Below are positions 32,366-34,194 of a stretch of DNA of 53,267 nt, piece by piece; the stretch's first letter is position 1; each line of letters starts with the position of its first letter. The notes beneath the pieces were generated by a model that searched no databases, was not told where the DNA came from, and saw nothing but the letters and a program-made list of their open reading frames with translations. The DNA comes from Bacteroidia bacterium. GTDB taxonomy: Bacteria > Bacteroidota > Bacteroidia > UKL13-3. A program made the translations under genes and the position numbers. Location of the stretch: contig JAKLJI010000022.1 in the NCBI GenBank assembly GCA_023151275.1, positions 1-53,267 on the forward strand, read 5' to 3'.

Positions 32366-32397
32366 TTGCCTTAACCAACCAAGAAAACATAAATTTG
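32366..32397 (+). promoter_or_regulatory. promoter of the 81-residue protein gene
   Basis: TTG (32366-32368), 21 nt, TAAATTTG (32390-32397), an exact -7 match. It ends 21 nt before the ATG at 32419. Confidence 0.6.
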
Positions 32398-32418: not shown

Positions 32419-32664
32419 ATGACTAAAGCTATCAAACCGGCACCCCCGAAGGCTGCAGCAAAGAGAAGTGCAGCAAGCTCGTCTTCAAAAGTGACGGCTG
32501 CCAAAGAAGCCACCAAGAAGCCAATCTTAGATGATGAGGATGAAGACGAAGTTGAAGAAGACGATCTTGATCTTGAATTGGATGAGCTTGAGATTGATGA
32601 ACCTAAAACCTTCGAAAGCTTTGACGACGAAGAGGATGATTTTGACGACGACGACGACTTTTAA
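32419..32664 (+). CDS. small bipolar protein: basic Ala/Lys/Pro N-half, Asp/Glu C-half
   Basis: An 81-residue low-complexity protein. Residues 1-35 hold nine Lys/Arg among Ala, Pro and Ser, like a histone H1 tail. Residues 36-81 hold about 30 Asp/Glu of 46 and end in a run of Asp plus Phe. No fold, signal or catalytic motif; probably disordered. It has its own clear promoter and an ATG with normal spacing, and the frame stays open, so it is a real gene. It could bind nucleic acid or basic proteins, or act like a chaperone; this is inference from composition. The stop directly abuts the stop of the convergent lipoprotein gene. Confidence 0.8.
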   Translation: MTKAIKPAPPKAAAKRSAASSSSKVTAAKEATKKPILDDEDEDEVEEDDLDLELDELEIDEPKTFESFDDEEDDFDDDDDF

Positions 32665-33225
32665 TTAACGGCGTATCCAAACTATCGGCGGGGTCTCTGC
32701 AATATTGCTTTTGTGGAGAGCCCTGTCGTAAATATAAAACCGGTAAATGGTTGTATCCTTTGCATTGGGATAATAACTTGGTCCTATACTCACTTCCACA
32801 TCCCCACGGATGGCCTTATGTCTTCCATCCGGCGTTATGCTCTCAAACCGGTAAGCATACGTTAAGGTATCAAACACATTGAAGGGATTGGTTACAAAAT
32901 TGAAAACTCCTAGGTACTTTTCGCGGTATTCAATGTGTATGTTGTTGTAATACGGATTGATGGATTTTCCGGTTGAATCAATTACCGGATTAAACGGAGC
33001 CAGGGTATCGGCCTGACTCAATCCCAAATCCCCATCACCATCCTTGAATGAAAACTGAAGAATCAACAAAGAATCCAATCCGGATTGATCACTTAAAAAA
33101 CGATAGGATTTGTATTCAATACTCGGTGTTTCAGGGTAAATTTCCTTTTTTTTGCAGGCAAACACGGTCGTTACCAACAGCCCGATAATTCCCAAATGAT
33201 AGAAAGCCCTGATTCTTGGTCTCAT
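32665..33225 (-). CDS. lipoprotein of unknown function (186 aa)
   Basis: A signal segment ends in a lipobox at Cys24 (TTVFACKKK). The mature part is beta-rich, with an acidic SFKDGDGDLGLSQADT segment near residue 58 and a later cluster of Tyr-rich strands. This matches a Bacteroidota lipoprotein type with a calcium-binding-like DGDGDLG loop; no function assigned. The first 30 nt overlap the 5' end of the divergent LuxE-like gene as annotated. A -7 box on the minus strand lies 14-21 nt upstream. Confidence 0.8.
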   Translation of the reverse strand: MRPRIRAFYHLGIIGLLVTTVFACKKKEIYPETPSIEYKSYRFLSDQSGLDSLLILQFSFKDGDGDLGLSQADTLAPFNPVIDSTGKSINPYYNNIHIEYREKYLGVFNFVTNPFNVFDTLTYAYRFESITPDGRHKAIRGDVEVSIGPSYYPNAKDTTIYRFYIYDRALHKSNIAETPPIVWIRR

Positions 33226-34194
33226 AACGTTGTTCGTTCAAATCTAACAAATTTTAACGAAATCTGCTTGCAGGCCTTTGGCTGGCAATGGGCAAATAAC
33301 CCGGTTTACCGCCAGTTTTGCTTACACTTGGGAATAACCCAAATCGAACAAATTACTTCCAACAAACAGATTCCATACCTTCCGGTTGAACTCTTCAAAA
33401 CGCAAAAGGTTTATGCAGCGCATCAAAATCCGGAAAAAGTTTTTGAAAGCAGTGGAACCAGCCAATCGGGGAATAGCCGTCATTGGGTGCGCAGTTTAAA
33501 ACTGTATGAAGATGTATTCATTAGCATTTTTGAATCCAATTTCGGCAGCTTAAAAGGCCATTGCGTGCTTGGCCTCCTTCCCTCCTACCTTGAGCGCGAG
33601 AACTCTTCTCTCATTTACATGGTAAAGGGACTCATGAAGGCTTCGGGTCATGGCTTGAATGGCTTCTTCCTCTATGAACAAGAGGCTTTGGCCGAACGTA
33701 TCCGAGAGCTAGAAAAGAAAGAAAAAAAATACTTCCTCTTTGGAGTGAGCTTTGCCTTATATGATTTTGCCAGCCGCTTTGCCTTGGAAATGCCTCATGC
33801 CGTCCTCATTGAAACAGGTGGCATGAAAGGACGCAGGAAAGAGATTACGCGCGATGAACTTCATGCGCATATACGGGCCGGACTTCATCCCGGAAAATTG
33901 GTATCCGAATACGGCATGAGTGAATTGCTCAGCCAAGCTTATTCCGATGAATCTGGCTTGTATGCGACGCCACCCTGGATGAAAATTTCACTGGCCGAAA
34001 TCAACGACCCATTCAGCCAACCAAAACCCGGAAAAAGCGGATTGATTCAGGTAATCGACCTGGCAAATATTTACAGCTGCCCTTTTATTCGAAGCTCAGA
34101 TTTGGGCAAAATCCACCCCGATGGACGCTTTGAAGTACTGGGTCGTGTTGACCATTCAGATACAAGAGGTTGCAGCCTGTTGCTTGCTGAATGA
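33196..34194 (+). CDS. LuxE/acyl-protein synthetase-like protein
   Basis: A 332-residue member of the acyl-adenylate family related to LuxE. The nucleotide-binding loop is FESSGTSQSGNSRHW near residue 83; other blocks are LGLLPSYLERENSSLIYMV, IETGGMKGRRKEITRDEL, VSEYGMSELLSQAY and DLANIYSCPFIRSSDLGKI. It could activate a fatty acid or aromatic acid and transfer it to a protein or CoA. Such genes often accompany acyl-CoA reductase or CoA-ligase genes, which are absent here. The only in-frame ATG near the 5' end is at 33196, inside the divergent lipoprotein gene; residues 1-16 look unlike coding sequence, so a non-ATG start near 33230 is possible. Confidence 0.8.
   Translation: MIESPDSWSHNVVRSNLTNFNEICLQAFGWQWANNPVYRQFCLHLGITQIEQITSNKQIPYLPVELFKTQKVYAAHQNPEKVFESSGTSQSGNSRHWVRSLKLYEDVFISIFESNFGSLKGHCVLGLLPSYLERENSSLIYMVKGLMKASGHGLNGFFLYEQEALAERIRELEKKEKKYFLFGVSFALYDFASRFALEMPHAVLIETGGMKGRRKEITRDELHAHIRAGLHPGKLVSEYGMSELLSQAYSDESGLYATPPWMKISLAEINDPFSQPKPGKSGLIQVIDLANIYSCPFIRSSDLGKIHPDGRFEVLGRVDHSDTRGCSLLLAE
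33239..33246 (-). promoter_or_regulatory. candidate -7 box of the divergent lipoprotein gene
   Basis: On the minus strand this reads TAGATTTG, an exact TAnnTTTG match, 13 nt upstream of the lipoprotein ATG. No clear TTTG upstream. It lies within the annotated 5' coding region of the LuxE-like gene. Confidence 0.35.

What the first reader, a model, noticed from the sequence alone, without database searches (positions are those of the whole stretch)
32419..32664. Bipolar 81-residue protein, histone-tail-like plus Asp/Glu tail
Seen: nine Lys/Arg in residues 1-35 among Ala, Pro and Ser; about 30 acidic residues in 36-81. Strong promoter, ATG-started. Its upstream neighbour is a histone-deacetylase-family enzyme. 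Inference: a disordered nucleic acid or basic-protein binding chaperone; the Lys tail might be a substrate for an acetylase/deacetylase. The link to the neighbouring deacetylase is speculation.
Basis: partly seen in the sequence, partly recalled or inferred. Interest (0 to 1): 0.5.

Follow-up and report, generated by a model that had tools for sequence, protein, structure and literature searches.

The report
Conserved disordered plus-minus-charged small protein
A tiny bacterial protein with a lysine-rich front half and an aspartate-rich back half that ends in phenylalanine is a real, conserved gene; it usually sits beside a deacetylase-like enzyme but survives where that enzyme is lost, so it most likely works on its own as a disordered helper that binds nucleic acids or their partner proteins.

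Summary
The 81-residue ORF is as described (9 Lys/Arg in residues 1-35, 30 Asp/Glu in 36-81) and the most charge-asymmetric of 115 window ORFs. It is a real gene: homologues lie at the same locus in 51 of 64 genomes of its taxonomic family, under purifying selection, 35 of 49 with a TTG-N-TAnnTTTG promoter. No Pfam/NCBIfam family matched it; AlphaFold2 gave no fold. But the deacetylase is the dispensable partner: ten of the 51 genomes lack an intact one, with no fall in lysine number. The enzyme is class IV (HDAC11-like) with the Thr gatekeeper of published clade A, whose members show little or no activity on acyl-peptides. Best reading (45%): a stand-alone disordered polyampholyte whose aromatic-capped acidic tail mimics nucleic acid. 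The deacetylase-substrate idea is disfavoured, not excluded. The molecular target is unknown.

The parts
32419..32664 (+). Bipolar small protein gene (81 aa plus stop), called BIP here
32419..32523 (+). Lys-rich basic half, residues 1-35 (8 Lys, 1 Arg, 1 Glu)
   Evidence: across 49 homologues Lys is 434 of 462 basic residues in this half
32524..32661 (+). Asp/Glu tail, residues 36-81 (30 acidic), with the K-T/S-F-x-x-F-D-D...D-D-F end; terminal Phe or Tyr
   Evidence: 30 of 30 HDAC-adjacent homologues end in F or Y with no end filter applied
32366..32397 (+). Bacteroidota-type promoter match TTG-N21-TAAATTTG, 21 nt before the ATG
   Evidence: consensus in PMC2483708
31390..32292 (+). Class IV (HDAC11-like) deacetylase-family enzyme; neighbour, not needed for BIP to persist
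32665..33225 (-). c1: lipoprotein-like gene of unknown family, convergent with BIP (stop codons abut); conserved neighbour
   Evidence: lipoprotein call by eye
33196..34194 (+). c3: LuxE-like acyl-protein-synthetase-domain protein (start codon uncertain), found in 268 of 296 class genomes; conserved neighbour

Best explanation
BIP is a stand-alone, intrinsically disordered polyampholyte with its own promoter. SHOWN (by sequence): conserved gene, Lys-not-Arg basic half, Asp-rich tail capped by a terminal Phe/Tyr, purifying selection on both halves, persistence without the neighbouring deacetylase. INFERRED: disorder, and that the acidic, aromatic-capped tail acts as a nucleic-acid mimic that docks on basic, nucleic-acid-binding surfaces (for example RNA polymerase, an SSB-tail-binding repair protein, HU or a ribosome factor), while the Lys-rich half holds nucleic acid or folds back on the tail. 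The net effect would be to exchange or release nucleic acid, as the acidic tails of the RNA polymerase delta subunit and of Hfq do. The physical target is not identified.
For: Gene at the same locus in 51 of 64 genomes of the family. dN/dS 0.23 or less in 13 of 14 comparisons, both halves. 30 of 30 HDAC-adjacent copies end in F/Y although no end filter was applied; an internal aromatic lies in the last 22 residues of 49 of 49 copies, and F followed by at least two acidic residues in 47 of 49 (this set was selected for an F/Y end). Lys is 434 of 462 basic residues of the basic part against 64% in 31 long window ORFs, and Asp 76% of the tail's acids against 41%. AlphaFold2 single sequence: mean pLDDT 63, pTM 0.18, no helix of 4 or strand of 3. 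The organism's main SSB ends DDDLPF, so acid-plus-terminal-Phe tails are in use there. Precedents: delta's disordered acidic tail displaces nucleic acid from RNA polymerase (PMC7749165, passages); Hfq's acidic tip mimics nucleic acid (PMC5606850, passages). Small bipolar ORFs ending DDDDF also occur in other contexts of the class (16 of 30 loci, after taking two loci of this kind, a c3-linked one and a probable fragment out of the 20 that pass the score).
Against: No binding partner, fold or phenotype is known; the mechanism rests on composition and analogy. The window copy lacks the published PUN nucleic-acid-binding pattern (27 of 49 homologues have it). Single-sequence AlphaFold2 is weak evidence of disorder. 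The basic half is not universal: it is weak in G009 and in the HDAC-linked G137 of f38, and four family genomes have only an acidic ORF without a clear Lys-rich half at the spot. One copy (G013) has its start region out of frame. In four genomes of 99-100% completeness no acidic ORF was seen beside c3, so the gene is not needed everywhere.
Confidence: 0.45

Rival explanations
1. BIP is the substrate of the neighbouring deacetylase: its lysines are acylated and the class IV enzyme removes the groups, tuning nucleic-acid binding.
For: Adjacency in 42 of 42 HDAC-bearing genomes of the family and in 3 of 4 f38 loci seen. Lys preferred over Arg 434:28. VcHdaH, placed in clade A, has reported de-decanoylase activity (PMC11532494; called very weak in PMC13325672). 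PMC11662656 (passages) notes that Lys acetylation may weaken such disordered motifs.
Against: Ten of 51 BIP genomes lack an intact HDAC; nine have no HDAC match genome-wide at E<=1e-20 (four of the nine are 70-89% complete) and G039 has a broken copy. Lysine count unchanged without HDAC. Thr gatekeeper 30 of 30 looked at and best PDB match chrHDAC11-1/A, whose clade showed no activity on the peptides tested and has a neutral-to-positive entrance. c1 and c3 are equally constant neighbours, so position may only be inherited order.
Confidence: 0.08
2. BIP is a polyphosphate-binding (PASK-type) protein, resembling E. coli YihI in having a Lys-rich N end and an acidic C end, and links polyphosphate or stress to ribosome or GTPase control.
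For: The published PASK definition (20 aa, at least 75% D/E/S/K, one Lys) is just met (0.75, residues 61-80) and is met by 39 of 49 homologues. PASK proteins are reported rare in the bacteria surveyed, and Lys-to-Arg change abolishes the polyP shift (PMC12345225, passages). Lys 94% of basic residues.
Against: In YihI the formal PASK stretch was not the main binding site. Any Asp-rich tail beside one Lys passes the test. No Pfam family at E<=0.1. I did not look for polyphosphate genes.
Confidence: 0.15
3. The tail is specifically an SSB-C-terminus mimic that competes with SSB for its partner proteins.
For: Acidic run plus free terminal Phe/Tyr in 30 of 30; own SSB ends DDDLPF. [quoted passage not shown]
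Against: Lacks the Pro before Phe; acid run far longer; some copies end in Tyr; the conserved internal F-x-x-F-D-D is not an SSB feature (recalled).
Confidence: 0.12
4. BIP has no specific partner: it is a bulk cation/metal-binding or solubility protein.
For: Extreme Asp content (18 Asp of 81); length of the acid run varies freely.
Against: The conserved aromatic end and K-x-F-x-x-F-D-D step and the Lys-rich half are unexplained.
Confidence: 0.05

Closest known systems
RNA polymerase delta subunit, C-terminal region, Bacillus
   Same: Disordered, strongly acidic tail that displaces nucleic acid (PMC7749165, passages)
   Different: Delta has a folded N-terminal domain that anchors it to RNA polymerase; BIP has a Lys-rich half instead and an aromatic end
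Hfq acidic C-terminal tip
   Same: Disordered acidic tip acting as nucleic-acid mimic (PMC5606850, passages)
   Different: The tip is part of the RNA chaperone itself; BIP is a separate protein
SSB C-terminal tail
   Same: Acidic tail with terminal Phe; own SSB ends DDDLPF
   Different: No OB domain, no Pro-Phe, much longer acid run
YihI and PASK/polyphosphate-binding proteins
   Same: Lys-rich disordered N end and acidic C end; formal PASK definition just met
   Different: YihI is a 169-aa regulator of the GTPase Der; no Pfam match of BIP at E<=0.1
Class IV HDACs (HDAC11, clade A; VcHdaH) - the neighbour
   Same: Best PDB relatives 9rje, 9gkv/9gky, 9gz5/9rjd; Thr gatekeeper
   Different: The Glu of clade A's Arg-Glu pair is Ile in the window enzyme by the printed alignment (counted by eye); VcHdaH has Tyr at the gatekeeper; substrate unknown

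Membership tests
Known protein family of BIP (Pfam, NCBIfam) | Score over a curated cut-off | tested here: not met
   P0001: 0 families at E<=0.1 in both libraries. Of 21 members scanned against Pfam at E<=1, best is 60S acidic ribosomal protein, E 0.009, in 2 members, whose cut-off the table did not show; I read it as compositional
RNA polymerase delta subunit | Folded N-terminal domain | tested here: not met
   No Pfam match; no fold in the single-sequence AF2 model
RNA polymerase delta subunit | Acidic disordered C-terminal region | tested here: met
   30 acidic, 1 basic in residues 36-81; disorder only predicted
SSB | OB-fold ssDNA-binding domain | tested here: not met
   81 aa, no Pfam match; the genome's two SSB-family matches lie elsewhere
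SSB | C-terminal acidic tip ending Pro-Phe | tested here: not met
   Ends DDDDDF; own SSB ends DDDLPF
PASK-motif proteins | 20 aa with at least 75% D/E/S/K and one Lys | tested here: met
   0.75 at residues 61-80; 39 of 49 homologues; definition from PMC12345225
PASK-motif proteins | Binds polyphosphate | not testable with these tools
   needs a gel-shift experiment
PUN-motif nucleic-acid binders | Published [RK] spacing pattern | tested here: not met
   absent in the window copy, present in 27 of 49 homologues (definition)
Substrate of the neighbouring deacetylase | Gene pair obligately linked | tested here: not met
   HDAC absent or broken in 10 of 51 BIP genomes
Substrate of the neighbouring deacetylase | Acyl-lysine on BIP removed by the enzyme | not testable with these tools
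   needs mass spectrometry and enzyme assay
Class IV HDAC, clade A (the neighbour) | Hist_deacetyl domain with small polar gatekeeper | tested here: met
   PF00850 E 1.9e-57; Thr in 30 of 30 family loci and in 73 of 80 loci of the species collection, the other 7 not matched by the pattern; signature from PMC13325672
Class IV HDAC, clade A (the neighbour) | Arg-Glu salt bridge in the foot pocket | tested here: inconclusive
   Arg present, Glu replaced by Ile, counted by eye on the alignment
Class IV HDAC, clade A (the neighbour) | Placement in clade A by tree | not tested
   only three PDB relatives compared by score: 214.7 (A), 191.9 (A), 189.7 (B) bits

The most novel reading that the evidence does not exclude
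A bacterial acylation cassette: the LuxE-like acyl-protein synthetase (c3) activates a fatty or other acyl group, the Lys-rich tail of BIP carries it as acyl-lysine, and the class IV HDAC11-like enzyme removes it, giving a natural protein substrate for this enzyme lineage and a histone-tail-like switch in Bacteroidota. The order HDAC-BIP-c1-c3 is kept in two taxonomic families.
Probability: 0.05. Interest if true: 0.85.

Novelty: new variant of a known kind. Interest (0 to 1): 0.42.

Why it matters
Stand-alone disordered charged proteins are hard to find by homology. This one is kept at one locus in most of a family, is under purifying selection and has a specific tail, so it is a clean test case for whether bacteria use free polyampholytes as nucleic-acid chaperones. 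It also shows why conserved adjacency is not enough: the deacetylase beside it is repeatedly missing while the small gene stays.

Tried and rejected
Rejected: 'HDAC adjacency proves function'. c1 (25 of 26 loci) and c3 (23 of 26; two of the missing at contig ends) are equally constant, and HDAC is missing or broken at ten BIP loci. Rejected: 'noise ORF', because of conservation and dN/dS. Left open: homology of BIP to the bipolar ORFs beside AnmK-like, ScpB-like and PurA-like genes (neighbour names by eye). The sequences are too low in complexity to call, and I do not claim it. Tried without result: Pfam/NCBIfam on BIP, PDB sequence search (one hit, LARP1, E 0.21), literature on small acidic Bacteroidota proteins and on HDAC gene neighbourhoods: nothing on this protein was seen in those two listings; no other search for it was made. 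A general BIP-c3 link was considered: outside the family an acidic small ORF was seen upstream of c3 in 3 of 55 loci (G137 and G166 of f38, which also have HDAC, and G237 of f28; one of the 55 loci had almost no upstream sequence), plus G189 of f28, while c3 is in 268 of 296 genomes. So there is no general link. The four family genomes with only an acidic ORF beside c3 (G019, G014, G007, G006) were not counted as BIP. The 49-sequence set was selected for a terminal F/Y, so terminal conservation is cited. That set also leaves out G013 (start region out of frame), G043 (locus not fetched) and the f38/f28 copies. The species-collection search kept the best 80 of 107 HDAC loci.

Full report
OBSERVATION. 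The ORF at 32419-32664 (+) starts with ATG and encodes 81 residues. Residues 1-35 hold 8 Lys and 1 Arg with one Glu; residues 36-81 hold 30 Asp/Glu and one Lys. Scored for the largest difference of net charge between two parts, it is first of 115 window ORFs of at least 60 aa (0.88; next 0.30). No Pfam or NCBIfam family matches it at E<=0.1. Among 21 relatives scanned at E<=1 the best Pfam hit is the 60S acidic ribosomal protein (E 0.009, 2 members), which I read as compositional. AlphaFold2 on the single sequence gives mean pLDDT 63, pTM 0.18 and no helix of four or strand of three residues, compatible with disorder but weak because no alignment was used.

IT IS A REAL GENE. A protein search of 97 genomes and a profile of 21 sequences (A1) found it; the profile matched 45 of 64 genomes of the same family at E<=1. 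All 45 lie at the HDAC or c1 locus: 40 by the HDAC coordinates, five by gene order. Two more, G024 and G031, were found by reading ORFs, and four more, G009, G030, G012 and G015, by fetching c3 in the 17 genomes then without a hit (13 of 17 had c3). That makes 51 of 64, including G013 with its start region out of frame and G009 with a weak basic half. Of the other 13: four have an acidic ORF beside c3 without a clear Lys-rich half (G019, G014, G007, G006), four showed no acidic ORF there (G016, G025, G032, G036), one is at a contig end (G040), and four gave no c3 match (G101, G102, G021, G028). In seven groups of close relatives dN/dS of each half is 0.23 or less in 13 of 14 comparisons (one with saturated dS, one with only two changes); one N half is 1.28 (3 synonymous and 15 non-synonymous differences summed over pairs). 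In a class sample of 346 genomes the profile matched 15 at E<=0.01, ten of this family and five outside (G094, G195, G256, G242, G363).

ANATOMY OF THE PROTEIN. All 30 HDAC-adjacent copies read end in F (29) or Y (1), with no filter on the end residue. Alignment A1 shows M-T-K at the start of most rows, a K-K step before the acidic run, and K-T/S-F-x-x-F-D-D in many tails. In 49 copies Lys is 434 of 462 basic residues of the basic part (94%), against 64% in 31 long window ORFs, and Asp is 76% of the acidic residues of the tail against 41%. So Lys and Asp are preferred, not merely charge. The same genome's main SSB ends DDDLPF.

EXPRESSION. TTG-N21-TAAATTTG lies 21 nt before the ATG. In the window alone such a match is expected by chance (2 found, 1.6 expected), but 35 of 49 homologues, including 8 of 10 without an intact HDAC, have TTG-N17-23-TAnnTTTG within 150 bp upstream, against 23 of 1049 windows of the same loci. 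The consensus for this phylum is in PMC2483708 (passages). A sigma-70 scan of the region found no excess (5 found, 4.3 expected) and no terminator in the 126-bp gap after the HDAC stop. I infer its own transcript from the promoter.

NEIGHBOURS. Gene order was compared in 26 loci, one of which (G085) is not at this locus. The usual block is three minus-strand genes that look like transhydrogenase subunits (by eye), HDAC (+), BIP (+), c1 (-), c3 (+). BIP and c1 are convergent, 0-112 bp apart in 31 loci, 0 in the window. HDAC matches occur in 42 of 64 genomes, and each has BIP directly downstream: 40 by coordinates, two by ORF reading. BIP stands without an intact HDAC in ten genomes: G098, G099, G034, G056, G010, G009, G030, G012, G015, and G039, whose HDAC has four stops. 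They belong to six genera, three of which also hold members with HDAC, so several losses are likely; no tree was made, and four of the ten are 70-89% complete. In a second family (f38) three loci have HDAC-BIP-c1-c3 (G094, G137, G166) and one BIP-c1-c3 without HDAC in the 3.2 kb seen (G195). c3 is in 268 of 296 genomes of the class, and an acidic small ORF was seen upstream of it in 3 of 55 loci outside the family.

THE DEACETYLASE. It is a Hist_deacetyl protein. The closest solved relatives are 9rje (214.7 bits), 9gkv (191.9) and 9gz5/9rjd (189.7). PMC13325672 (passages) names 9RJE as chrHDAC11-1/A and 9RJD as liHDAC11/B, groups VcHdaH (9GKY) with clade A, gives Thr/Ser as the typical clade A gatekeeper, and reports no activity of the clade A enzymes tested on its peptides. 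PMC11532494 (passages) does report lysine de-decanoylase activity for VcHdaH, which PMC13325672 calls very weak; this tells against a simple 'not a deacylase'. The window enzyme has Thr (GGTHHAF), as do 30 of 30 family loci looked at; the Arg of the clade A Arg-Glu pair is present, the Glu is not (counted by eye). This argues against, but does not exclude, a Lys tail as substrate. Lysines are not fewer where HDAC is missing (8.7 against 8.9 per basic part); recent losses could hide a trend.

HOW IT MOST LIKELY WORKS. The most constant element is the aspartate-rich tail with inner and terminal aromatic residues, joined to a Lys-rich half. Known acidic disordered tails displace nucleic acid from its binding proteins: the delta subunit on RNA polymerase (PMC7749165, passages) and Hfq's tip (PMC5606850, passages). 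I therefore think BIP is a free version of such a tail, an exchange factor for some nucleic-acid-binding protein (45%). The main rival is a polyphosphate-binding PASK-type role like YihI (PMC12345225, passages; 15%). The target cannot be named from sequence.

WIDER PICTURE. DDDDF-stop occurs in 36 of 296 class genomes, against 4 with the reversed control pattern as I read the table. Of 30 fetched loci, 20 pass a small-bipolar score; two of these are loci of the present kind (G094, G027), one is c3-linked (G189) and one looks like a fragment of a larger protein (L194), leaving 16 in other contexts. Several sit beside genes that look like AnmK, ScpB or PurA. Whether these are homologous to BIP is open.

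VERDICT. A real, conserved, uncharacterised small-protein family; the deacetylase pairing is a conserved but dispensable adjacency.

Noticed in passing
window 32662-32667: The stop codons of BIP and of the convergent lipoprotein-like gene abut with no base between; in 31 related loci the gap is 0-112 bp, leaving little room for a terminator.
   Followed up: partly
window 33196-34194; A LuxE-like acyl-protein-synthetase-domain gene (c3) is present in 268 of 296 genomes of the class, often divergent from a fast-evolving lipoprotein-like gene (c1); its role is not named by the family searches.
   Followed up: partly
L157 (G039): The HDAC gene beside BIP is broken by four stops while BIP is intact, a case of deacetylase loss.
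   Followed up: partly
L178-L207: Small bipolar ORFs ending DDDDF recur beside genes that look like AnmK, ScpB and PurA/PabB in other families of the class; possibly a wider, unnamed class of proteins.
   Followed up: partly
L193 (G291): A protein with an RRM-like start (by eye) ends in an acidic tail DDDEDDDDF, the same tail type fused to an apparent RNA-binding domain.
   Followed up: no
L183-L187 (G316, G284, G301, G220, G197): Large proteins with Lys-rich C-termini also end in DDDDF.
   Followed up: no
L222 (G000:C22): The genome has a second SSB-family gene whose product lacks the acidic DDDLPF tail.
   Followed up: no
L150/L015 (G013): The BIP copy has its start region out of frame with the acidic half; a recent break or an assembly error.
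   Followed up: no
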